Shown in pieces: positions 28,340 to 41,442 of a stretch of DNA of 64,000 bases. This DNA comes from Paracoccaceae bacterium. Lineage in GTDB: Bacteria; Pseudomonadota; Alphaproteobacteria; Rhodobacterales; Rhodobacteraceae. A model generated the notes under the pieces. It searched no databases. It saw only the letters and a program-made list of their open reading frames with translations, and was not told the DNA's origin. Where the stretch lies: contig JAHRYM010000002.1 in assembly GCA_020622085.1 (NCBI GenBank), forward strand, positions 519,281-583,280, read 5' to 3'. The position numbers and the translations under genes are program-made. How positions within the stretch are numbered: the first letter of the stretch is position 1; each line of letters starts with the position of its first letter.

Positions 28340-30637
28340 ATGTCCATCGCTTACGCTCATTCCGGAACGCAGTCCGATCGCAGTGACTGGCAAACCTTGT
28401 CCAGCCACCTTGCGCAGACCGCTTCTCTCGCCGCCGAACGCGCCTCTCCTTTCGCATTGACCGAGGCGAGCCGGCTGGCTGCCGCTTTCCATGACTTCGG
28501 CAAGAACGATCCGGCATTTGATCGGGTATTGCAGGGGAAAGGAGATCGCGTTGATCATTCGACGGCAGGTGGCAGGCTGTTGATCGACCGCGCCGACAGC
28601 AAGACCCGTTTTGCCGCTCAACTCCTTGCGCATACCATCCTCGGCCATCACGCCGGACTGCCCGACAGTACGGGAAGCGAGGCCTCGCAGTCTCGGCGGC
28701 TGGACGGGTTCAACGATCCGATCTCGGTCGAAGTGACGCGGGCTGCGGTCGTGGACCTCTTGCCTGCGGCTAGGGAGTTGGCCGCCAAATGCCGGAAGGA
28801 ACATCTTGGCTTTGACCTCTCGCTTGCGGGGCGGATGGTGTTTTCTGCTCTGGTCGATGCCGACTTTCGGGATACCGAGGCGTTCTATGGCCAGATGGAG
28901 TCCGGGGAACATGTCTGGCCTGGCCTGCAGGATATTCTACCCGGCCTACGTTCCGGCTTCGACCGAAAGATGGCAGGGTTTGCGAGCGGCGAGTTGAACC
29001 AGCTCCGCTCGGAAATCCTGCGGCACATCCGCGTCGGCGCCGACCTGCGCCCCGGCCTGTTCACACTTACCGTCCCGACCGGCGGCGGCAAGACCCTGGC
29101 CTCGATGGGCTTTGCGCTGGACCACGCGGCAAGGTATGGCCATCGCAGGATCATCTATGCAATCCCCTACACCTCAATCATCGACCAGACGGCCGAAACG
29201 TTCCGGAACCTGTTCCAGAACCTGGGCGATGTCGTGCTGGAGCATCATTCCGCCATCGACACTGAAGCCAGCACCGGGCCGAAGATCGTCAGAGAAGGCA
29301 GCACCCGTCTGTCCGAGCAGAAGGCGAAGCTGCGACTCGCCATGGAGGATTGGGCCGCCCCCATCGTTGTCACGACCAATGTTCAGCTTTTCGAAAGTCT
29401 GTTCGGCTCCCGGCCCTCGCGCTGCCGCAAACTGCACAACATCGCCGGTAGCGTGATCATACTGGATGAAGCGCAATGCCTTCCGCGTTCGCTTCTGGCA
29501 CCGACCCTGCGGATGATCGACGCGCTGGCCGCGCATTATGGCTGCACGGTGGTACTGTGTACGGCCACCCAGCCGGCCTTCAACAGCGCCCAATTGGATC
29601 GGAGCCGCAGGGGGAACGATGGCAAGCCACGGAAGATCGGTCTCGATCTGACCGGACGCGAACTGGCACCGGGCCCCGATGCGTTGGCTGAACGGCTTCG
29701 CCGGGCCAGGATCGTCGACGGCGGCACCATGGACGACGCGGCGCTGACTGTAGCCCTGCAGGAGACCCCGCAAGCCATGGTCATCGTCAACAGTCGCAAG
29801 CATGCACTTGCCCTGTATCGCGCTGTGGAGGACCAGCCGGGCGCGCTGCATCTGACCACCCGGCAGTACCCTGCCCATCGGCGCCAGATCATCGCGGACA
29901 TCAAGCGGCGCCTTGCGGAAGATGCTCCTTGTCGGTTGATCGCCACCAGCCTGATCGAGGCCGGGGTCGACCTATCCTTCCCGAAGGGCTGGCGTGCCGA
30001 GGCGGGTCTCGACAGCATCGTCCAGGCGGCAGGTCGGGTGAATCGGGAAGGCCGGTGGGATATTCAGACCAGCACGCTTACTGTCTTCACGCCCACCGAT
30101 CATGCGCCACCAGCCGAAATCCAGACCCTGGCGAAGACGATGCGCAGCACGCTTGCGCGGTTCGGGCCGGATGCGCTCCTCTCTCCCGCAGCCATCCGGC
30201 ACTGGTTTGAAGAAGTCTACTGGCGCGCCGGGGAAAGCCTTCTTGACCGGCATGCCATCGTCGAGGCTTTCCGCTTCGCACCGTTGACCGGCGACTTTGA
30301 CTTCGCCTATCGCTCGGTCGCCGAGAGTTATCGCATGGTCGAAAGCCCGCTCTTGCCGGTGATCATTCCGACCGAGGCCTCGACCGAGGCCATCCGCCAA
30401 CTGGGGGTAGAGCAGATCTCCTCGAGCAGGATCGCCCGGGCATTGCAGCCCTATGTCGTGCAGGTTCCGGCCCGTTCCCGGGAAATGCTGCGCATCAACG
30501 GCAAGGGCAGCTTCGTGTCAGCAGAAATACGGGGCGACCAGTTCTTTGTGCTCTCGGACCCAGGACTTTACCGGCAGAACATCGGCCTGTTCTGGGAAGG
30601 CGCGGATGAGTTGAGCGAGACCCAGGCCATGATCTGA
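28340..30637 (+). CDS. cas3: CRISPR-associated helicase-nuclease Cas3 (type I-C)
   Basis: A 765-residue effector that unwinds and shreds DNA marked by Cascade. The N-terminal HD nuclease has His51-Asp52 in FHDFGKNDPAF and the second metal cluster in LAHTILGHHAGLPD. The SF2 helicase follows: Walker A VPTGGGKTLASMG (about residue 250), DEAQ box VIILDEAQCLP, TATQPAF, and motif VI IVQAAGRVNREG. All key residues are present. A 273-base gap separates it from cas5, unlike the overlapping genes downstream. Confidence 0.97.
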   Translation: MSIAYAHSGTQSDRSDWQTLSSHLAQTASLAAERASPFALTEASRLAAAFHDFGKNDPAFDRVLQGKGDRVDHSTAGGRLLIDRADSKTRFAAQLLAHTILGHHAGLPDSTGSEASQSRRLDGFNDPISVEVTRAAVVDLLPAARELAAKCRKEHLGFDLSLAGRMVFSALVDADFRDTEAFYGQMESGEHVWPGLQDILPGLRSGFDRKMAGFASGELNQLRSEILRHIRVGADLRPGLFTLTVPTGGGKTLASMGFALDHAARYGHRRIIYAIPYTSIIDQTAETFRNLFQNLGDVVLEHHSAIDTEASTGPKIVREGSTRLSEQKAKLRLAMEDWAAPIVVTTNVQLFESLFGSRPSRCRKLHNIAGSVIILDEAQCLPRSLLAPTLRMIDALAAHYGCTVVLCTATQPAFNSAQLDRSRRGNDGKPRKIGLDLTGRELAPGPDALAERLRRARIVDGGTMDDAALTVALQETPQAMVIVNSRKHALALYRAVEDQPGALHLTTRQYPAHRRQIIADIKRRLAEDAPCRLIATSLIEAGVDLSFPKGWRAEAGLDSIVQAAGRVNREGRWDIQTSTLTVFTPTDHAPPAEIQTLAKTMRSTLARFGPDALLSPAAIRHWFEEVYWRAGESLLDRHAIVEAFRFAPLTGDFDFAYRSVAESYRMVESPLLPVIIPTEASTEAIRQLGVEQISSSRIARALQPYVVQVPARSREMLRINGKGSFVSAEIRGDQFFVLSDPGLYRQNIGLFWEGADELSETQAMI

Positions 30638-30910
30638 CGGCGCCCGACCGCAAAGGGGCCGGGCGCCTCCGGCTCGGAAACTTCTTAGCCAATGTTTCTA
30701 TCCGCATAGCCCGAGGCCACGACCCGCGCTGATTTTAATGCTTTTGCCACAGCTGCCACAGCGCCCAAGAAGAATAACCGCGCGGTTACTTCGATACAAA
30801 AATTTAACTTCTTAACCAATGAAAAAGTGATTGCCAGGGCTTGCAACCCTGTGCAACACTTTCCGGGCCAGACTCACCCTCCGGTGGTCTGGCGCTGCTT
30901 CGAGGAAATC
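30638..30910 (+). promoter_or_regulatory. Structured intergenic region between cas3 and cas5
   Basis: No gene is seen. One base after the cas3 stop is a perfect 8-bp hairpin (GGCGCCCG/CGGGCGCC, 30639-30667) followed by TCCGGCTCGGAAAC. A 16-base direct repeat AACTTCTTARCCAATG occurs at 30679-30694 and 30806-30821. The middle is AT-rich (30790-30830). A second hairpin, GCCAGAC..GTCTGGC with CACC/GGTG inside (30867-30893), lies just before the GAGGA ribosome site of cas5. It probably holds a separate promoter and 5' leader for the cas5-cas2 genes. Confidence 0.55.
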
Positions 30911-31609
30911 ATGTCCTACGGTATCCGATTGCATGCCCGGGGCCGCCACGCCCTTTTCACCCGACCGGAATTGAAAGTTGAGCGCGTCTCCTACGACGTG
31001 ATGCCTCCCTCGGCGGCGCGGGGTATCCTGGAGGCGATCCACTGGAAGCCTGCTATCCGCTGGGTGATCGACCGCATCCATGTGCTGGAGCCGATCCGTT
31101 TCCAGTCGATCCGCCGGAACGAGGTCGGGCACAAGGCGCCGGCCGGCAAGATCAGGCAGGCGATGAACCGGGGCGATCTGGCCGACCTTCAGATCCTGGT
31201 GGACGAGGACCGCCAGCAGCGCGCATCGACCGTCCTTGTGAACCCCGCCTATGTGATCGAGGCGCATTTCGTGCTGACCTCCCGCGCGGATGCCTCCGAC
31301 AGCGAAGGCAAGCATCTCGACATCTTCAATCGTCGCGCGGCCCGCGGCCAGTGCTTTCACCAGCCCTGCCTTGGCACCCGGGAATTCGCCGCCGACTTTG
31401 GCCTGATCGAACCCGGCACCCCGCTGCCCGACCGCGCCCCCGCGGCCGAAACCGCCGATCTGGGCTTCGGCACTCCGCGCGACCTGGGCTTCATGCTCTG
31501 GGACATAGACCACGGCAAGGCGTCCCGCCCCTCGCTTCTGTTCCGCGCGACCTTGCGCGACGGCGTGATGGAGGTGCCGCAACCCGGCAGCCCGGAGATC
31601 CGGCAATGA
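30911..31609 (+). CDS. cas5c: Cas5c/Cas5d, crRNA-processing subunit (type I-C)
   Basis: A 232-residue protein from ATG 30911 with GAGGA upstream. The start MSYGIRLHARGRHALFTRPE and SYDVMPPSAARGILEAIHWK are the type I-C Cas5 signature. In this subtype, which lacks Cas6, Cas5 cuts the repeat RNA and stays on the 5' handle in Cascade. FGTPRDLGFMLWDIDHG is near the C-terminus. Its stop overlaps the cas8c start (ATGA). The ORF track's start at 30827 lies in the leader region. Confidence 0.96.
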   Translation: MSYGIRLHARGRHALFTRPELKVERVSYDVMPPSAARGILEAIHWKPAIRWVIDRIHVLEPIRFQSIRRNEVGHKAPAGKIRQAMNRGDLADLQILVDEDRQQRASTVLVNPAYVIEAHFVLTSRADASDSEGKHLDIFNRRAARGQCFHQPCLGTREFAADFGLIEPGTPLPDRAPAAETADLGFGTPRDLGFMLWDIDHGKASRPSLLFRATLRDGVMEVPQPGSPEIRQ

Positions 31610-33390
31610 GCCTTCTTTCCGCCCTGGTCGCCGCCTACGACCGCCTGCCGGACGCCCCGCCTTTCGGGTATTCGACCGAAAAGATCGGCTTCTGCGTGAT
31701 CCTGAATGCGGATGGGTCCGTGGCCGAAATCATCGATTTGCGATCAGCCGACAATCAACGCAGCCCCCGGATGATGCAGGTTCCTGCGTCACCCAAACGG
31801 TCGGGAAGTACGCCTCGCCCCAATTTCGTTTGGGACAACCTGAACTACGCGTTGGGTGCGGGAAAATCGCGAAACTCCGACGATCTGAGGTTCGACGCTT
31901 TCAAGGCGAAGCATCTGGAGTTCCTGCGGGATCTGAAATCCGAAGATGCGCAGGCCTTTTGCCGTTTCCTTGAAACTTGGAATCCCGAGTCCGTCGCAAG
32001 CCATTTCGATTTGGAGAAGCTTCCGACAGAGGGAATTATTTTCGCGTCCGCAAGCAATGCCGGCAAGACTTTTCTGCATGAAGTACCCGAAATCCGGGCG
32101 TTTTGGGCCAGTGAAGGAGACCGCTGGAAAGCCATCGAGGGCAAGAGTTCCTCTAACGCCACCTGCCTTCTGACCGGCAACCGATCGCCAATCGCCCGGA
32201 CTCATCCGCCGATCAAGGGAGTATGGGGCGCCCAAGTTGCCGGGGCGGCTCTGGTCTCCTTCAATGCAGACGCTTACGAGTCCTACGGCCACGAGCAGGG
32301 CAACAATGCTCCGATCTCCGAAGCCGCGACCTTCGCCTATACGACCGCGCTCAACCGCTTTCTGGCGGACAAGGCGCACCGGGTGCAGATCGGCGACACA
32401 TCTGCCATCTTCTGGGCAGATGCGAGCAGCGTGCAGGCACTTGCGGCCGAAAGCCTCTTCGCCGGGTTTTTCGACGAACGCCCTTCGAAAGAGGACATCA
32501 TCAATGCCGAAGTCCCCGCAACCCGCAAGATCGCCGGGGCGCTGGAAGCGATCCGCGCTGGCGTGCCTATCGCCCGGATCCTGCCCGACCTCGGCCCGGT
32601 CCGGTTCCATGTCCTTGGCTTGGCACCCAATGCCGCCCGCCTTTCGGTGCGGTTCTATTGGGAAAGCAGCTTCGGCCAGCTGGTGCAGAACTATCAGCGC
32701 TATCTGGACGACATGCGGCTTGAGCCGCCGCCGCGCGATGGCTGGCCACCGCTCTGGCGTTATCTGGTCGAGCTGGCCGTGCAGGGCAAGCGCGAGAATG
32801 TGCCCCCCCTTGTTGCCGGAGAATGGATGCGCGCCATCCTGACCGGCGCGCGCTATCCGATGACGTTTTTCTCGACGACCCTGATGCGCATCCGCTCGGA
32901 CGGCGAGGTCAACGCCTACCGCGCTGCCATGCTCAAATCCGTCCTGACCCGCAACTTTTCCATGGAGGCCCCTGTGGCGCTCGATCCCGCCAACCTGAAC
33001 AAAGGCTACATCCTCGGTCGGCTCTTTGCCGTCTACGAAGAGGTTCAGCGCTCCGCCCTTGGTGGCAATGTGAACGCGACGATCAAGGACAAGTTCTATG
33101 GCTCGGCCTCGGCTACGCCGCAGAAGGTGTTCCGAACTCTGGATGCGGGGTCGCAGAACCACTTTTCCAAGCTGCGCAAGTTCAGCCCCGGGCGGGCTGT
33201 AAATCTGGAAAAGCTGCTGACCTCGATCACCGATCTGATGGAGCCCGGCAACGATCCGATCCCGGCCTCGCTGTCGGCTGCGGAACAGGCCTTGTTCGGC
33301 ATAGGCTATTACCACCAGCGCAGCGATTTCTTCCGCAAGCGCGACGAAGCCAACCCGGCCGAGGCTCCGCTGACCGAAGCCATCGAATGA
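31606..33390 (+). CDS. cas8c: Cascade large subunit Cas8c (Csd1)
   Basis: A 594-residue Csd1-family protein opening MSLLSALVAAYDRLPDAPPFGYSTEKIGF, the family's standard start. WDNLNYALGAG and CLLTGNRSPIARTHPPIKGV are further conserved blocks. It recognises the PAM and recruits Cas3; in type I-C a small subunit is also made from an internal start within this gene in studied systems, and an internal start here has not been tested. It overlaps cas5 by 4 bases; cas7 follows after 43 bases. Confidence 0.95.
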   Translation: MSLLSALVAAYDRLPDAPPFGYSTEKIGFCVILNADGSVAEIIDLRSADNQRSPRMMQVPASPKRSGSTPRPNFVWDNLNYALGAGKSRNSDDLRFDAFKAKHLEFLRDLKSEDAQAFCRFLETWNPESVASHFDLEKLPTEGIIFASASNAGKTFLHEVPEIRAFWASEGDRWKAIEGKSSSNATCLLTGNRSPIARTHPPIKGVWGAQVAGAALVSFNADAYESYGHEQGNNAPISEAATFAYTTALNRFLADKAHRVQIGDTSAIFWADASSVQALAAESLFAGFFDERPSKEDIINAEVPATRKIAGALEAIRAGVPIARILPDLGPVRFHVLGLAPNAARLSVRFYWESSFGQLVQNYQRYLDDMRLEPPPRDGWPPLWRYLVELAVQGKRENVPPLVAGEWMRAILTGARYPMTFFSTTLMRIRSDGEVNAYRAAMLKSVLTRNFSMEAPVALDPANLNKGYILGRLFAVYEEVQRSALGGNVNATIKDKFYGSASATPQKVFRTLDAGSQNHFSKLRKFSPGRAVNLEKLLTSITDLMEPGNDPIPASLSAAEQALFGIGYYHQRSDFFRKRDEANPAEAPLTEAIE

Positions 33391-33433: not shown

Positions 33434-34387
33434 ATGACCCCTATTTCCCCTCGCCACGATTTCGCGCTGATCTTCGACGTGACCAACGGCAATCCCAATG
33501 GCGATCCCGATGCGGGCAACCTGCCGCGGCTGGATCCCGAGACCAATCACGGGCTGGTTTCCGATGTCAGCCTGAAGCGCAAGATCCGCAACTATGTCGA
33601 ACTCGCCCGGACCGGAGAGGCGGGGCATCACATCTATGTCCAGGAAGGCGCCATCCTGAACGAGAAGCACCGGCAAGCCTATGTCGCGCTGCGCCCCGAT
33701 GATGCGAAGGCCGGCAAGGATGCCAAGCTGAACCCCAAGGATGACGCCGAAGCGGCAAAGCTTCGCGATTGGATGTGCGCGAATTTCTTCGATGTCCGCG
33801 CTTTCGGCGCCGTCATGTCGACGGGCATCAACTGCGGTCAGGTCAAGGGCCCGGTGCAGATGACCTTCGCCAGCTCGGTCGAACCGATCCTGCCGGTCGA
33901 GATCACTGTCACCCGCATGGCCGCCACCAACGAGGCCGAGAAGAAGAAAGCCGCCGAAGGCTCGGACGGCGACCAGCGTTCCGACAACCGCACCATGGGC
34001 CGCAAGCATATCGTGCCCTACGGCCTTTACGTCGCGCATGGCTTCATCTCGGCCAAGTTCGCCGAAAGGTCCGGCTTTTCCGAGGATGACCTTGCGCTGC
34101 TGTTCGAAGCCCTGACATCCATGTTCGAACACGACCGTTCCGCTGCGCGAGGCGAGATGACGACCCGGCGACTGATCGTCTTCCGGCATGAGAACGCCCT
34201 GGGCAACGCCCCCGCCCACAAGCTGTTCGACCGGATCCGGATCGGGCGGAACGTCGATGGCGAGTTCCGTCCGCTGGACGACAAGGGGCTTGGCAACATG
34301 GCCCCGGCGCGGCGGTTCGCCGATTATCGGATCGAGGTCGACCGGGACGACCTGCCGCAGGGCGTCGAAATCCTGGACCTCGTCTGA
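33434..34387 (+). CDS. cas7c: Cascade backbone subunit Cas7 (Csd2, type I-C)
   Basis: A 317-residue Cas7 protein that polymerises along the crRNA spacer. It begins with the RRM-like strand HDFALIFDVTNGNPNGDPDAG, and contains FDVRAFGAVMSTGINCGQVKGPVQ, the typical Cas7 loop and glycine-rich block. RKHIVPYGLYVAHGF follows. The length is normal. An ATG with GAGGACAAAC upstream starts it. It is 3 bases before cas4. Confidence 0.96.
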   Translation: MTPISPRHDFALIFDVTNGNPNGDPDAGNLPRLDPETNHGLVSDVSLKRKIRNYVELARTGEAGHHIYVQEGAILNEKHRQAYVALRPDDAKAGKDAKLNPKDDAEAAKLRDWMCANFFDVRAFGAVMSTGINCGQVKGPVQMTFASSVEPILPVEITVTRMAATNEAEKKKAAEGSDGDQRSDNRTMGRKHIVPYGLYVAHGFISAKFAERSGFSEDDLALLFEALTSMFEHDRSAARGEMTTRRLIVFRHENALGNAPAHKLFDRIRIGRNVDGEFRPLDDKGLGNMAPARRFADYRIEVDRDDLPQGVEILDLV

Positions 34388-34390
34388 GCG

Positions 34391-35014
34391 ATGCCCGCCG
34401 AGATGGAGCCCATCCCCCTCTCGGCGGTGCAGCATGCGGTCTACTGCCTGCGCCAGGCGGCGCTGATCCACCTCGAACGGCTCTGGGCGGAAAACCGTTT
34501 CACGGCGGAAGGCACGGTCCTGCATGCCGTGGCCGACAAGGGCGGCTCACGCAAGGCGCGCGGGGTGCGGCGGGTTCTTTCGCTGCACCTCGGCTCGCAG
34601 CGGCTGAACCTGGTGGGCGTGGCCGACCTGGTGGAGTTCGCCCCGGACGGCCGCGCCTTTCCGGTGGAATACAAGCGCGGCAAGCCCAAGCTCCACCGCG
34701 CCGACGAGGCACAGCTTTGCGCCCAGGCTCTGTGCCTTGAGGAAATGACCGGGCGACCGGTTCCCGAAGGCGCGCTGTATTATGCCCAGACGAAGCGCCG
34801 GGTGACCGTTCCCTTCGATGAGGGTCTCCGTGCCCTGACCGAGGCCGCCGTGGTCGAGCTCGCCCGGGTGTTCTCCAGCCAGGAAACACCGTCGCCTACC
34901 GCCCAGAAATCACGCTGCCGGGCCTGTTCCCTGGTCGATCTTTGCCGCCCGGATGCCTGTGCCCGCCCCGCCCGCGCTTGGTGCGACCGAATGATCGTGA
35001 AGGCCCTGGAATGA
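34391..35014 (+). CDS. cas4: Cas4 nuclease for spacer processing
   Basis: A 207-residue RecB-type nuclease with an iron-sulphur cluster. The first Cys is in AVQHAVYCLRQAALIHLE and the other three in KSRCRACSLVDLC. The active-site strand is FPVEYKRGKPKLHRADEAQL. Cas4 trims prespacers to select PAM and orientation for Cas1-Cas2. The start is 3 bases after cas7. The stop overlaps the cas1 start (ATGA). Confidence 0.95.
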   Translation: MPAEMEPIPLSAVQHAVYCLRQAALIHLERLWAENRFTAEGTVLHAVADKGGSRKARGVRRVLSLHLGSQRLNLVGVADLVEFAPDGRAFPVEYKRGKPKLHRADEAQLCAQALCLEEMTGRPVPEGALYYAQTKRRVTVPFDEGLRALTEAAVVELARVFSSQETPSPTAQKSRCRACSLVDLCRPDACARPARAWCDRMIVKALE

Positions 35015-36042
35015 AGAAACTTCTCAATACCGTCTATGTGACCACCGAGGGCGCGGCATTACGAAAGGATGGCGAAAACCTCGTCGCCGAGGTCGAAGGG
35101 GTCGAAAAGGCCCGGGTGCCCCTCCACATGCTTGGCGCCGTCGTGGTCTTCGGGCCGATCCTGCTCACCCCATCCCTGATTGGCACCTGCGCCGAACGGC
35201 GCATCACGATTTCGCTTCTTGACCGCGCCGGGCGGTTCCAGGCCCGCGTCGAAGGTCCGGCGCAGGGCAACGTCCTGCTGCGCCGGGCGCAGTACGCCCA
35301 GGCCGAGGCGGGAACCGACATCGTGCGGTCCTTCGTCCTGGCCAAGATCGCGAACCAGCGCGCCGTCCTGCGCCGGGCGATCCGGGACCATGGCGAGGCA
35401 GATCCTGCCGCTGACGAGGCGCTGGAGCGAGCTTCGGACCGGATGGCCGCGATCCTGCGACGTGTCCAGATGGCCGATGAAACGACCGACCAGTTGCGCG
35501 GATCCGAAGGCGAGGCCGCCAACCTCTATTTCGCCGTCTTCGATCATCTGGTCCGCACCCCGGAACCCGAACTCCGCTGGACATCGCGTTCCCGGCGCCC
35601 GCCGCTCGATCCAATGAATGCGCTGTTGTCATTCCTTTATACTCTTCTGACCCATGACTGCCGCTCCGCCTGCGAATCCGTGGGGCTCGACCCGGCCGTC
35701 GGCTTTCTTCACCGCGACCGGCCCGGGCGCCCATCCCTGGCGCTCGACCTGATGGAGGAATTTCGCGCCCCGCTGGCCGACCGGCTTGCCCTGTCACTGG
35801 TCAATCGCAGGCAGCTTCGGGCGCACGATTTCCAGCGCATGGACAGCGGCGCGGTGCTTCTGACTGACGAAGGCCGCAAGACCGTCCTTACCGCCTGGCA
35901 AGAGCGCAAGCGCGAGGAGCGCCAGCATGGCTTCCTTGACGAGAAGGCGCCGCTTGGCCTCGTGCCCCATCTTCAGGCACAGCTCCTCGCCCGCCATCTG
36001 CGTGGCGACCTCGACGCCTACCCGCCGTGGTTCTGGAGCTAG
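35011..36042 (+). CDS. cas1: Cas1 integrase (type I-C)
   Basis: A 343-residue Cas1 from ATG 35011: MKKLLNTVYVTTEGAALRKD, the I-C form. The C-terminal helical catalytic domain contains DPMNALLSFLYTLLTHD and GFLHRDRPGRPSLALDLMEEFR, which carry the metal-binding His and acidic residues. It inserts new spacers at the leader end with Cas2. It overlaps cas4 by 4 bases; cas2 starts 6 bases later. Confidence 0.97.
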   Translation: MKKLLNTVYVTTEGAALRKDGENLVAEVEGVEKARVPLHMLGAVVVFGPILLTPSLIGTCAERRITISLLDRAGRFQARVEGPAQGNVLLRRAQYAQAEAGTDIVRSFVLAKIANQRAVLRRAIRDHGEADPAADEALERASDRMAAILRRVQMADETTDQLRGSEGEAANLYFAVFDHLVRTPEPELRWTSRSRRPPLDPMNALLSFLYTLLTHDCRSACESVGLDPAVGFLHRDRPGRPSLALDLMEEFRAPLADRLALSLVNRRQLRAHDFQRMDSGAVLLTDEGRKTVLTAWQERKREERQHGFLDEKAPLGLVPHLQAQLLARHLRGDLDAYPPWFWS

Positions 36043-36048
36043 ACGGAA

Positions 36049-36339
36049 ATGCTGGTTCTGGTGACCTATGACGTGAATACGCTGGAGGCCGGTGGCAAGA
36101 AACGCTTGCGCAGGGTTGCCAAAGCCTGTGAAGATTTCGGTCAACGGGTGCAGTTCTCGGTCTTCGAGATCGAGGTCGATCCGGCCCAGTGGGCAAAGCT
36201 GAAAGCGCGCTTGGAAGGCACAATTGATCCAGCCCATGACAGTCTGCGCTATTATTACCTTGGTTCGAACTGGGAACGCCGGATCGAACATGTGGGCGCC
36301 AAACCAGCCACCGACCTGAATGGCCCCCTGATCATTTGA
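36049..36339 (+). CDS. cas2: Cas2 (type I-C)
   Basis: A 96-residue ferredoxin-like protein starting [23 protein letters not shown] with the conserved Asp after the first strand. [15 protein letters not shown] is the second conserved segment. It forms the scaffold of the Cas1-Cas2 adaptation complex. It is the last cas gene, 187 bases before the first repeat. Confidence 0.97.
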
Positions 36340-36526
36340 TTGCCGCCGTGCGAACCCCTAGCGTGCCTGAGAGCCCCGGCAGGTTCGCAGTCGATCCAGC
36401 TCTTTGAAACCGTTCAACAAATTGTCAGCTTTCCGCACTCAATGTGAGGAATGGACGACCAATCTCGCCATCTTCGCTATTTAAGACGGATTTTCCGTTT
36501 CCACACAAACGGCTAGACTACCCTAG
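36340..36526 (+). promoter_or_regulatory. CRISPR leader with inverted repeat
   Basis: A non-coding stretch between cas2 and the first repeat. An inverted repeat TGCGAACC/GGTTCGCA (36349-36389) with an inner TGCC/GGCA pair comes first, then AT-richer sequence with CTCTTTGAAACCGTTCAAC and a TATTTAAGACGG near 36478. It should contain the array promoter and the integration anchor for Cas1-Cas2. I cannot place the promoter exactly. Confidence 0.7.
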
Positions 36527-39500
36527 GTCGCCCCCACCCGGGGGCGCGGATCGAAACCTGACACGTCGGCGTAGCGGAACATCCGGTCGCCGGTCGCCCC
36601 CACCCGGGGGCGCGGATCGAAACGCGCGGACGGCCCGGCAGGGTCACATCCAGCCATTGTCGCCCCCACCCGGGGGCGCGGATCGAAACCTGCCGTATTC
36701 GGCGTTCGCCAGATTTCAGGGCATGTCGCCCCCACCCGGGGGCGCGGATCGAAACCATATCCAGCCCGGTGTCGAAGTCGCGTGCAAGCAGTCGCCCCCA
36801 CCCGGGGGCGCGGATCGAAACGGAGCAAGGTCGCGGTGCTGTCGGTGCCCGAATGTCGCCCCCACCCGGGGGCGCGGATCGAAACTTTGGCTGATCCGTG
36901 AGTGGGCTGACCGCTATGGTCGCCCCCACCCGGGGGCGCGGATCGAAACGCTTGATCTGGCGCGGTCGCTGGCGGGCGATGCGGTCGCCCCCACCCGGGG
37001 GCGCGGATCGAAACTGTCACTCCTTGCACCAAGGGATAAATTTACGCGTCGCCCCCACCCGGGGGCGCGGATCGAAACTGCTATTTCCAGCGGGCCGGGT
37101 ATGAAGGCTTTGGTCGCCCCCACCCGGGGGCGCGGATCGAAACACGCCATATCCTGCGATTGTGGCTTGACAGTCCCGGTCGCCCCCACCCGGGGGCGCG
37201 GATCGAAACGCGAAGCTGCGTGAGCAATATAAAGGCTGGTCGGTCGCCCCCACCCGGGGGCGCGGATCGAAACCGGCGGCTGACCCACATGATGCGGCTC
37301 AATCAAGAGTCGCCCCCACCCGGGGGCGCGGATCGAAACAAGCAGGGCGTCACAAAGGCGCGCGCCGGGCAATGTCGCCCCCACCCGGGGGCGCGGATCG
37401 AAACTGGGATTTGACTCGGCGGCAATGGGACGTGATTGGGTCGCCCCCACCCGGGGGCGCGGATCGAAACCGGTTCTGGCTGGTTTGGCTGCGGCCATCG
37501 CGGGTCGCCCCCACCCGGGGGCGCGGATCGAAACTGGGCCGCTGGCATGCGCTGCGCGCCGCCGGGGGGTCGCCCCCACCCGGGGGCGCGGATCGAAACC
37601 TGGCTGTAGTCGCGCAGGAACACCCGCCCCGGTCGCCCCCACCCGGGGGCGCGGATCGAAACGTGACCAACATTCGCACCCGCTTGGGGCGATCTGGTCG
37701 CCCCCACCCGGGGGCGCGGATCGAAACATTGTAACTACGAATAGTGACAGGCATGGTGCGGTCGCCCCCACCCGGGGGCGCGGATCGAAACGTCCGGTCG
37801 ATGGTCATGTTACCGAACTCGCCTGGTCGCCCCCACCCGGGGGCGCGGATCGAAACGACAGCGATGCCCGCATGGCGACCGCTGGCCAGGTCGCCCCCAC
37901 CCGGGGGCGCGGATCGAAACATGCGGTGGGCGGTGTGACGCGGGCACTTTCGTCGTCGCCCCCACCCGGGGGCGCGGATCGAAACGACTGGATCAGCCCC
38001 TTGTCGCCATGCACCTGGCGGTCGCCCCCACCCGGGGGCGCGGATCGAAACAGTTATTTCCAGCGGGCCGGGTATGAAGGCTTTGGTCGCCCCCACCCGG
38101 GGGCGCGGATCGAAACTGGCGCGGGAGAGCACTGTGTTTGGCTATTCAGAGGTCGCCCCCACCCGGGGGCGCGGATCGAAACTGCGACTGGCCGGGTGGT
38201 CCCTATCCGCAAGGGCGGTCGCCCCCACCCGGGGGCGCGGATCGAAACTGTCGGTTGACCGAAGTCGGCTGCACCCTGTCCTGTCGCCCCCACCCGGGGG
38301 CGCGGATCGAAACAGGTGGCCGATGGGTCGGCGGAAATCAATTGTGGGGATAGTCGCCCCCACCCGGGGGCGCGGATCGAAACAGGTGTTTCTGCGGACG
38401 TTTCTTCGGGATTTGGAAGTCGCCCCCACCCGGGGGCGCGGATCGAAACGGCGTAAAGCCCGGTCCAAGGCGCTCGCGCAACGGTCGCCCCCACCCGGGG
38501 GCGCGGATCGAAACCTGACCAGTGATCTGAAACTTTACCGCTGGACCGGTCGCCCCCACCCGGGGGCGCGGATCGAAACAGCCTGAAGGCCCAATAATGA
38601 TCGTTTTCTATGACGTCGCCCCCACCCGGGGGCGCGGATCGAAACATCTTCGCGGCCCGGATGCTTAAGGACATGGCGCCGTCGCCCCCACCCGGGGGCG
38701 CGGATCGAAACTGGGATTTGACGCGGCGGCAATGGGACGTGATTGGGTCGCCCCCACCCGGGGGCGCGGATCGAAACTCCCTAGACGGGTTCGGTGCGCT
38801 GGCGCGCATAACGTCGCCCCCACCCGGGGGCGCGGATCGAAACATATTTTTCATCGGCCAACCTCAGATAGATGTGGGGTCGCCCCCACCCGGGGGCGCG
38901 GATCGAAACGCGCTCCATGCGCGCCCTCATGCGCGGACGCCCGGTCGCCCCCACCCGGGGGCGCGGATCGAAACGGGTGCTAGGCAACCGCCAATGAGGG
39001 CGGGGGGAAGTCGCCCCCACCCGGGGGCGCGGATCGAAACGCGTATCTTATGAAATACGCTCTCAAAGAGGCGTGTCGCCCCCACCCGGGGGCGCGGATC
39101 GAAACCGATAACCCGCCGACGGCAGGTCGAACGCCCGAAGGTCGCCCCCACCCGGGGGCGCGGATCGAAACCGGTCGATGGTTTTCGGGATGGTGAAACG
39201 CAAGAGTCGCCCCCACCCGGGGGCGCGGATCGAAACGGCAAGAAAAAGGCCAAGGCACCTGGCGTTGATTGTCGCCCCCACCCGGGGGCGCGGATCGAAA
39301 CTCGGCTCCCGGCTACCTTTAAGGCGGCGGCGGATAGTCGCCCCCACCCGGGGGCGCGGATCGAAACCACGGCAACCGGGCCGATTATTGGCTGGGGAAA
39401 AGTCGCCCCCACCCGGGGGCGCGGATCGAAACCGCAGCACGGAACGTATTGGAAGGCGCTGACGAAGGTCGCCCCCACCCGGGGGCGCGGATCGAAACTG

Positions 39501-39866
39501 ACCCGCCTTTCCATCGGGCACGACATACGATTTCACCGGGTCGCCCCCACCCGGGGGCGCGGATCGAAACTGACCCTTCGCGCCTCGACCCGCGACATGC
39601 AGCGGTCGCCCCCACCCGGGGGCGCGGATCGAAACCAGCAGGCCGGTGTCATTGGTGATGCCGGGCCGGGTCGCCCCCACCCGGGGGCGCGGATCGAAAC
39701 TGGACGACCTCAACCTTGTCCGGATCAAGAAAATCGTCGCCCCCACCCGGGGGCGCGGATCGAAACACAAGCGCCTTGACCACGAGCGTGGCGAAGTAGT
39801 CGTCGCCCCCACCCGGGGGCGCGGATCGAAACGGCGCCTACCATGTTGTTGACTATGGGGCGCGTG
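36527..39866 (+). CRISPR. Type I-C CRISPR array, 51 intact repeats plus a degenerate end
   Basis: I count 51 copies of a 31-base repeat beginning GTCGCCCCCACCC and ending GCGGATCGAAAC, the first at 36527 and the last at 39802-39832. The repeat has the I-C hairpin (CGCCCCCacCCGGGGGCG-type) and the GAAAC end. Spacers are mostly 32-36 bases; two are longer (39 bases at 38314-38352, 41 at 39499-39539). A 51st spacer (39833-39866) is followed by a broken repeat, GTCGCTCCCACCCGTGCC. The GAAAC 3' end and leader position fix transcription as rightward. The repeats look identical throughout the intact part, which fits an actively maintained array. Confidence 0.98.
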
Positions 39867-40344
39867 GTCGCTCCCACCCGTGCCCGGGGGACTGGAGGTG
39901 GAGTTCTGGGGGCGGCCGATGCGGGTCTTCCCCAAGCACGGACAGATCCGGCCGCTGACCCTGATCGGGCGGGCGCTGGCACGGGAACGCATCGGTCTGT
40001 GGCTGATGGCACGGGCGATCGCCCGCGGAGGCCTGCGCATCGTTGGCGCACTGGGCGGACGCTGGCCGACCTGGCTGGGGTTCCGGCTTTGGCTCCTCTT
40101 GCGGCGGCTGGCACGGTCGATCTTCGACTACCCGGAAGACCCGCGCGAAGGCCCACACGGGCGGCTGATGTCAGGCTGCACGGCGATCCTGCGCTTTGAC
40201 TACAACGGCACCGAACGGGTTTTCCGCCTTGACCAGGTGCGCCGCCATCCCAACGACAACATCCATCTTCTCGGGCGCCTGCTGCCCGATCGACCTGCGC
40301 TTCCCCGGGCAGTGGTTCCAGACGGAAACCGGCTTGCACCATAA
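39867..40344 (+). pseudogene. Unrecognised ORF fragment at the distal CRISPR end
   Basis: From the degenerate repeat onward one frame (ORF 39880-40344) reads LEVEFWGRPMRVFPKHGQIR, then a Leu/Arg-rich, possibly membrane-associated stretch (WLGFRLWLLLRRLA), then SGCTAILRFDYNGTERVFRL. I do not recognise it. It has codon use like a gene, but no start separate from the array, and the frame changes near 40285, where Rhs homology begins. It looks like the remaining part of a gene cut by the array's expansion or by deletion. Confidence 0.4.
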
Positions 40345-40593
40345 CTGGATGCGGGACTACGATCCGACAACCGGGCGGTATCTGGAGGCCGACCCGCTGG
40401 GGCTGGTGGATGGGGCGAGCGTCTGTGGCTACGCAAGGCAGAACCCGGGGCGGTGGACGGATCCGAGGGGATTGGCAGATACGATGCTGCCCAAAAGAGC
40501 ACCTCGGCCGCCTGCCGAACATCTATATTGCGCCAGTAGTGAAGATGACTGCCACGATACCTGGGAAGCTGACAAAGCGGCATGCTACACTAG
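40285..40593 (+). pseudogene. C-terminal remnant of an Rhs/YD-repeat protein
   Basis: The frame of ORF 40196-40603 carries the Rhs core end: DLRFPGQWFQTETGLHHNWM, RDYDPTTGRYLEADPLGL, and ARQNPGRWTDPRGL, after which a variable tip (HLYCASSEDDCHDTWEADKAAC) begins. Only the last 100 or so residues of a protein that is normally over 1000 remain. The tip is interrupted by the IS5-family element at 40594. Polymorphic Rhs proteins deliver toxins between cells, but this one cannot be made. Confidence 0.8.
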
Positions 40594-41442
40594 GCCGTGT
40601 TGACAAAAGGGATTCACAAGGCGGGCTGAGCGTGATTCAAGCTGGTATCTGCGATGGCGACCAGCTTGGCACGAGACCTGATGTCGGACGAGGAGTGGGC
40701 ATTCCACGAGCGCTTTATCTTAGCCGTCCGCGCCCCGAACGGGCGCAAGCCACTGAACCATCGGCTTGTTCTGGATGGCATTTTCTGGATCGCGCGGACA
40801 GGTTCGCCTTGGCGGGACCTGCCTGAAGAGTCCGGCAAGTGGTCCAGCGTATACTGCCAGTTCCGGCACTGGACGCTGGCAGGATTGTGGGAGCAGATTA
40901 TGGACGCGCTTGACGAGAGCGGTTTGGTTCCCGACGCCCTGCAGATGGTCGACAGCACCGTGGTCCGCGCCATCATCAGGCAGCGGGCGCTAAAGGGGGA
41001 CTCCACGACAGGGTTTCGGCCGTTCGCGAGGTGGCTTCACGACCAAGATCCACCTCCGCGTCGACGGTGCCGGTCTCCCCATGAGGTCGAACATCACGCC
41101 GGGCCAGACATCGGACCATCCGGGCTTCGATCTGGTCATGGACGACAACCTGCCCGAGCCCTGCGTCCTGCTGGCAGACCGTGGCTATGACTCTGACAAT
41201 GTTCGCAAAACCATGGAGACGCGCAACGTCGTGCCGGTGATCCCGATGCGCAAGTCCCGCAAGCTTCGCATGGCCGTGGATCGCACCTTCTACCGGCTGC
41301 GCAACCTGGTCGAGCGCTGCTTCAACAGGCTGAAGAACGCCCGCCGCGTCGCCACCCGTTACGACAAGACCGCCGAAAGCTTCCTGGGCTTCATCAACGT
41401 CACCTGCATCCGCCTATGGCTCCGCTATTTGTCAACATGACC
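40594..41442 (+). mobile_element. IS5-family (IS427-like) insertion sequence
   Basis: Terminal inverted repeats GGCCGTGTTGACAAA (left) and the reverse complement of TTTGTCAACATGACC (right) bound an 849-bp element. A TAG (41443-41445 and 40591-40593) flanks both ends as a target duplication, as expected for this group. It lies between the Rhs remnant and mgtC, whose stop codon it abuts. Confidence 0.85.
40654..41440 (+). pseudogene. IS5-family transposase, two frames with an extra deletion
   Basis: The first frame gives MATSLARDLMSDEEWAFHER to MVDSTVVRA; the second gives MRSNITPGQTSDHPGFDLVM and LLADRGYDSD, then RLRNLVERCFNRLKNARRVA with the DDE residues. In related elements a programmed -1 shift at an AAAGGGG run joins two frames. 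Here the segment HHQAAGAKGG, expected between them, lies in a third frame, implying a one-base deletion near 40970 besides the programmed shift. The element is probably inactive. Confidence 0.85.

What the first reader, a model, noticed from the sequence alone, without database searches (positions are those of the whole stretch)
37405..38746. Spacer pair 14 and 34 differing by one synonymous base
Spacers at 37405-37439 and 38712-38746 match at 34 of 35 bases; the change (ACT to ACG) is silent in a frame reading WDLTRRQWDVI. Two independent pairs in one array point to a recurrent target, possibly a conserved phage gene sampled again, and to preferred acquisition sites or primed adaptation.
Basis: partly seen in the sequence, partly recalled or inferred. 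Interest (0 to 1): 0.65.

Follow-up and report, generated by a model that had tools for sequence, protein, structure and literature searches.

The report
Same target site captured twice, CRISPR
A bacterial CRISPR immune memory holds two slightly different copies of each of two invader fragments, most likely because related but diverged versions of the same unknown invader were sampled at the same sites on separate occasions; this is real but ordinary, and other large arrays of this type show it too.

Summary
Spacers 14 (37405-37439) and 34 (38712-38746) match at 34/35 bases, and spacers 9 and 24 match at 32/34. The array has 51 identical repeats and a complete type I-C cas operon. Neighbouring spacers are unrelated, so neither pair looks like a remnant of a block duplication. 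No target was found in the host genome, 297 family genomes, INPHARED, PLSDB or IMG/VR, so gene and phage remain unidentified.

The silent-change argument fails: 82% of random single changes in this spacer would be silent in some open frame, and the 9/24 change is silent in none. Two pairs do not show hotspots either. In 21 other I-C arrays from relatives (about 630 spacers) I found 8 comparable pairs sharing the 5' edge within one base; several differ in length, which copying inside the array would not produce. At that rate 0.5 pairs are expected here (P of two or more about 0.09).

Best explanation: repeat acquisition at the same site from diverged relatives of one target, already reported for type I-C in Legionella (PMC5071653). 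Primed adaptation is plausible for 24 to 9 (seed mismatches) but not shown. New member of a known kind; low interest.

The parts
37405..37439 (+). Spacer 14, newer copy of site A (position 12 = T)
38712..38746 (+). Spacer 34, older copy of site A (position 12 = G)
37079..37112 (+). Spacer 9, newer copy of site B (TGC at positions 1-3)
38052..38085 (+). Spacer 24, older copy of site B (AGT at positions 1-3)
36527..39832 (+). CRISPR array: 51 identical 31-bp repeats, 50 spacers
39833..39890 (+). Spacer 51 (39833-39866) and a broken terminal repeat; marks the old (trailer) end
   Evidence: read from the sequence
36340..36526 (+). Probable leader, between cas2 and the first repeat
   Evidence: position only
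28340..30637 (+). cas3 (HD, DEAD, Cas3 C-terminal domains)
   Evidence: Pfam
30827..31609 (+). cas5 (Cas_Cas5d)
   Evidence: Pfam
31624..33390 (+). cas8c / csd1, subtype I-C signature gene (start approximate)
   Evidence: Pfam
33434..34387 (+). cas7
   Evidence: Pfam
34391..35014 (+). cas4
   Evidence: Pfam
35011..36042 (+). cas1 (start inferred from domain position; ORF opens at 34942)
   Evidence: Pfam
36049..36339 (+). cas2
   Evidence: Pfam

Best explanation
[quoted passage not shown] Its adaptation proteins cut spacers at a fixed edge next to a PAM. The host met diverged relatives of the same invader, probably a phage, at different times, and the same two PAM sites were captured again: 34 then 14 (site A), and 24 then 9 (site B). 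The one to two base differences were already present in the invaders. From old to new the order is 34, 24, 14, 9, that is A, B, A, B, which fits two separate exposures. Shown: the pairs, the system, the lack of block duplication, and the same pattern in sister arrays. Inferred: the invader, its divergence, the number of exposures, the PAM (TTC, from other I-C systems).
For: Both pairs are far above chance. Neighbours of the paired spacers are unrelated (scores 4-8 against a null maximum of about 12). Three substitutions fall in 69 bp of paired spacer and none in 1550 bp of repeat. In 21 other I-C arrays, 8 pairs agree at the 5' edge within one base and differ by substitutions or in length at the far end (e.g. 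L159 19/27 and L162 44/48 identical but 35 vs 36 and 35 vs 34 bases), and two arrays have shifted overlapping spacers (L162 27/43, L196 66/67); none of this arises from copying a spacer. A true block duplication (L162 104-106 = 107-109) is identical. Precedent in Legionella type I-C (PMC5071653).
Against: No target was found, so neither variant is shown to exist in an invader. Across many arrays, repeated spacers are mostly classed as array duplications (695 of 805) and rarely as reacquisitions (8) (PMC11472070). In the window pairs themselves length and edges are the same, so the ragged-edge evidence comes only from sister arrays. Repeats may stay uniform by copying and selection, which weakens the substitution argument.
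Confidence: 0.8

Rival explanations
1. Duplication inside the array: repeat-spacer units were copied by replication slippage or recombination, the copied neighbours were later deleted, and the copies then picked up point mutations.
For: General base rate: most repeated spacers in CRISPRCasdb are classed as duplications (PMC11472070). Exact block and single duplicates exist in relatives (L162 104-109; L196 15/38 and 62/72). Copies here keep the same length and edges.
Against: Single spacers 15 and 20 units apart with no shared neighbours; all three substitutions in the paired spacers and none in 51 repeats; both pairs mutated, whereas the real block duplicate in L162 is identical.
Confidence: 0.15
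2. Escape and primed re-acquisition (a more specific form of the best explanation): the invader changed at the seed of site B, spacer 24 failed but primed adaptation, and spacer 9 was captured from the escaped invader at the same PAM.
For: The 9/24 differences are at positions 1 and 3, inside the seed (positions 1-5, 7, 8; PMC5904413). Direct precedent in Legionella type I-C, where the older spacer of each of two pairs has a seed or PAM mismatch and the newer is perfect (PMC5071653).
Against: Site A differs at position 12, a base flipped out of pairing in type I-E Cascade (PMC5965380), so no escape is expected there. The target is unknown, so clustering of other spacers cannot be tested. Seed-changing differences may simply be natural variation.
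Confidence: 0.3
3. Acquisition hotspots: sites A and B are taken up far more often than other PAM sites in the invader.
For: Two sites were each sampled twice among 50 spacers. If only half the spacers came from one 40-kb phage group, P(2 or more pairs) would be 0.02.
Against: The rate of such pairs in 21 other arrays predicts 0.5 here, P(2 or more) 0.09; if all spacers came from one 40-kb group 0.96 pairs are expected. No control set of captured sites is available.
Confidence: 0.12

Closest known systems
Legionella pneumophila Toronto-2005 (ST222) type I-C array and element LME-1 (PMC5071653)
   Same: Type I-C; two pairs of spacers in one array aimed at the same or overlapping sites, captured at different times; one pair here also differs in the seed.
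   Different: There the target is known, spacers overlap rather than coincide, and interference and priming were tested; here the target is unknown and nothing was tested.
Duplicated and reacquired spacers catalogued by SpacerPlacer (PMC11472070)
   Same: Near-identical spacers recurring within one array.
   Different: Most there are classed as array duplications; here the anatomy and the comparison with sister arrays favour reacquisition.
Type I-C arrays of other Alphaproteobacteria (L157, L159, L162, L172, L196)
   Same: Pairs of near-identical spacers sharing the 5' edge, not part of a block duplication.
   Different: Several differ in length at the far end, one pair is adjacent (L157 2/3), one is more diverged (L172 3/5); no spacers are shared with the window array.

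Membership tests
Type I-C CRISPR-Cas | cas3, cas5, cas8c (csd1), cas7, cas4, cas1, cas2 and no cas6 | tested here: met
   All seven found by Pfam in that order on one strand; csd1 at 1e-169. Absence of cas6 inferred from the gap-free operon, not searched genome-wide.
Type I-C CRISPR-Cas | 31-32 bp palindromic repeat ending in GAAAC | tested here: met
   31-bp repeat GTCGCCCCCACCCGGGGGCGCGGATCGAAAC, 51 copies; the same repeat sits beside csd1 in relatives
Type I-C CRISPR-Cas | TTC PAM beside protospacers | tested here: inconclusive
   No target found. The one perfect match (spacer 2 in the host's own pheS) lacks TTC.
Reacquired spacer pair (same protospacer, diverged target) | Same PAM-side edge, with substitutions or different far-end length | tested here: met
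   Same edge and substitutions in both pairs; lengths equal here, ragged in sister arrays
Reacquired spacer pair (same protospacer, diverged target) | Both variants present in invaders, each next to a PAM | tested here: inconclusive
   Searched in phage, plasmid, viral and genome collections; nothing found
Array duplication | Identical copies, usually as a contiguous block | tested here: not met
   Copies differ and neighbours are unrelated; a real block duplication in L162 is identical
Primed adaptation | Further spacers from the same invader, with strand or distance bias around the priming site | not testable with these tools
   Needs the target genome, which was not found

The most novel reading that the evidence does not exclude
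The A, B, A, B order records two epochs of attack by one diverging phage lineage, and spacer 9 was acquired by priming from a seed-escape mutant at the very same PAM, so the array keeps both sides of an escape and re-arming event. It would also mean that re-acquisition at the same PAM is a regular outcome in type I-C systems.
Probability: 0.25. Interest if true: 0.45.

Novelty: new member of a known kind. Interest (0 to 1): 0.22.

Why it matters
The pairs are a small natural record of a bacterium meeting diverged versions of one invader. The more useful by-product is the comparison across arrays: near-identical spacers sharing the PAM-side edge recur in 4 of the 5 other I-C arrays with at least 40 spacers. 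Such pairs should be expected in large arrays and should not be read as hotspots; they could be used to estimate the effective number of target sites (here roughly 2,400) and the divergence of unseen phages.

Tried and rejected
IS5-type transposase start as the target (a resemblance recalled from memory): the codon-degenerate peptide pattern with up to 3 mismatches found nothing in 397 family genomes except the array. GH108 lysozyme as the target of 9/24 (Synechococcus phages, E about 1): only the first half agrees, 8-9 mismatches over the whole spacer. Pbunavirus and several other blastn hits to concatenated spacers: they straddle artificial junctions. IMG/VR hits to RRQWDVIG: 16-17 mismatches to the spacer over its 35 bases, chance. 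Shared spacers in arrays with the same repeat in Defluviimonas, Fuscovulum and a MAG named RHODO1, and in 18 further I-C arrays: none. Sister strains: only one other genome of the genus is held, and it has neither the repeat nor csd1. The first plasmid search used a query that included the repeat and is uninformative; it was redone. Laying the whole genome in the Python box was not possible.

Full report
WHAT IS THERE. Between 36527 and 39832 lies a CRISPR array of 51 identical 31-bp repeats and 50 spacers of 32-41 bp. It follows cas3, cas5, cas8c (csd1), cas7, cas4, cas1 and cas2 on the same strand, so it is a complete type I-C locus. It sits on the smaller contig (1.14 Mb) of a 3.62-Mb two-contig genome. 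The far end has one more spacer and a broken repeat, so the leader, and the newest spacers, are taken to be on the cas2 side. Spacers 14 and 34 match at 34 of 35 bases (position 12), and spacers 9 and 24 at 32 of 34 (positions 1 and 3). All other spacer pairs score at the level of shuffled sequences.

IS THE SILENT CHANGE INFORMATIVE? No. Of all 105 single-base changes possible in spacer 14, 86 (82%) are silent in at least one open frame of the six, and the average over the 50 spacers is the same. The observed change is silent in two frames. In the 9/24 pair the changes are non-silent in all four frames without stops (Cys/Ser, Ala/Val, Ser/Asn, Ala/Thr). There is therefore no evidence of purifying selection on a gene, and the peptide WDLTRRQWDVI is only one possible reading.

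WHAT IS THE TARGET? Unknown. I searched the host genome and 297 others of the family with up to 3 mismatches, 397 family genomes with the codon-degenerate peptide and 3 mismatches, GTDB species genomes exactly at peptide level, INPHARED and PLSDB with blastn, and IMG/VR with seven patterns for the two sites. Only chance matches came back. Spacer 37 matches a tail gene of a gene-transfer-agent-like cluster in the host at 29/34, over the gene's stop codon. Spacer 16 weakly matches a gene of the same kind of cluster, with 7-9 mismatches in many orthologues. So part of the array may aim at phages related to that tail module, and such phages of this family are poorly sampled (inference).

DUPLICATION OR RE-ACQUISITION? 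Spacers flanking the paired ones are unrelated (scores 4-8), and the spacers between 9 and 14 and between 24 and 34 share nothing, so a block duplication would need extensive complementary loss. Three substitutions lie in 69 bp of paired spacer and none in 1550 bp of repeat, although repeats may be kept uniform by copying and selection. The strongest evidence is comparative. I collected 21 other I-C arrays with about 630 spacers from Alphaproteobacteria, found by csd1 or by the shared repeat. Eight pairs agree at the 5' edge (the PAM side) within one base and differ by substitutions or in length at the far end: L157 2/3; L159 19/27; L162 44/48 and 82/95; L172 3/5; L196 35/61, 87/92 and 99/100. 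The last two are low-complexity and less certain. Two arrays also have spacers overlapping by 19 bases with shifted edges (L162 27/43, L196 66/67). Copying an existing spacer would keep its length and edge; fresh capture at the same PAM gives exactly this pattern. The one clear block duplication (L162 104-106 = 107-109) is identical over all 105 bases.

IS IT A HOTSPOT? The rate in the other arrays, 8 per 19,268 spacer pairs, predicts 0.5 pairs in this array; P(2 or more) is 0.09. A second estimate uses about 32 TTC sites per kb measured in the window. If all 50 spacers came from one 40-kb phage group, 0.96 pairs would be expected; if only half did, P(2 or more) falls to 0.02. A hotspot is allowed but not required.

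MECHANISM. Reading from old to new the order is 34 (A), 24 (B), 14 (A), 9 (B), which fits two exposures to related invaders, though an alternating order is one of three possible and so not rare by chance. In type I systems the seed is positions 1-5, 7 and 8 (PMC5904413), and positions 6, 12, 18, 24 and 30 are flipped out in type I-E Cascade (PMC5965380). Applied to this I-C system by analogy, spacer 34 should still recognise the variant captured as 14, whereas spacer 24 should recognise the variant captured as 9 poorly. The 24-to-9 step could thus be an escape followed by primed re-acquisition, as proposed for Legionella type I-C and LME-1 (PMC5071653, Fig. 7B). The same paper reports two laboratory-acquired spacers on one protospacer and no enrichment near the priming site.

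VERDICT. The claims of a conserved gene, preferred sites and priming are unsupported or untestable here. The phenomenon is known, and it is common in large I-C arrays.

Noticed in passing
36624-36658 (spacer 2); target in L006 at about 1506-1540 (G000:C2:479530-479564): Spacer 2, the second newest, is a perfect 35/35 match to the host's own essential gene pheS (phenylalanyl-tRNA synthetase alpha). The match lacks a TTC PAM on either side (CGG / CCG), which probably makes it tolerable. The source may be self DNA or DNA of a relative, for example delivered by a gene transfer agent (speculation).
   Followed up: partly
38910-38943 (spacer 37) and 37535-37568 (spacer 16); L007 and L039-L118: Spacer 37 matches the end of a baseplate hub gene (Phage_phiJL001_Gp84_N) of a gene-transfer-agent-like cluster on the host's own main contig at 29/34; spacer 16 weakly matches another gene of such clusters. 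The array may target phages with related tail modules.
   Followed up: partly
36527-39832: All 51 repeats are identical, whereas sister arrays of similar or larger size have 1-5 variant repeats.
   Followed up: no
39867-41440: The old end of the array is broken within its last repeat and runs into what looks like a fragment of an RHS-type repeat gene (from reading, not tested) and then an IS4/5-family transposase split over two frames (40654-41190, DUF4096 by Pfam, and 41081-41440).
   Followed up: no
L162 (G364) and L196 (G507): Very large I-C arrays (124 and 108 spacers) with block duplications, exact single duplicates and spacers overlapping by 19 bases with shifted edges; good material for separating duplication from re-acquisition.
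   Followed up: partly
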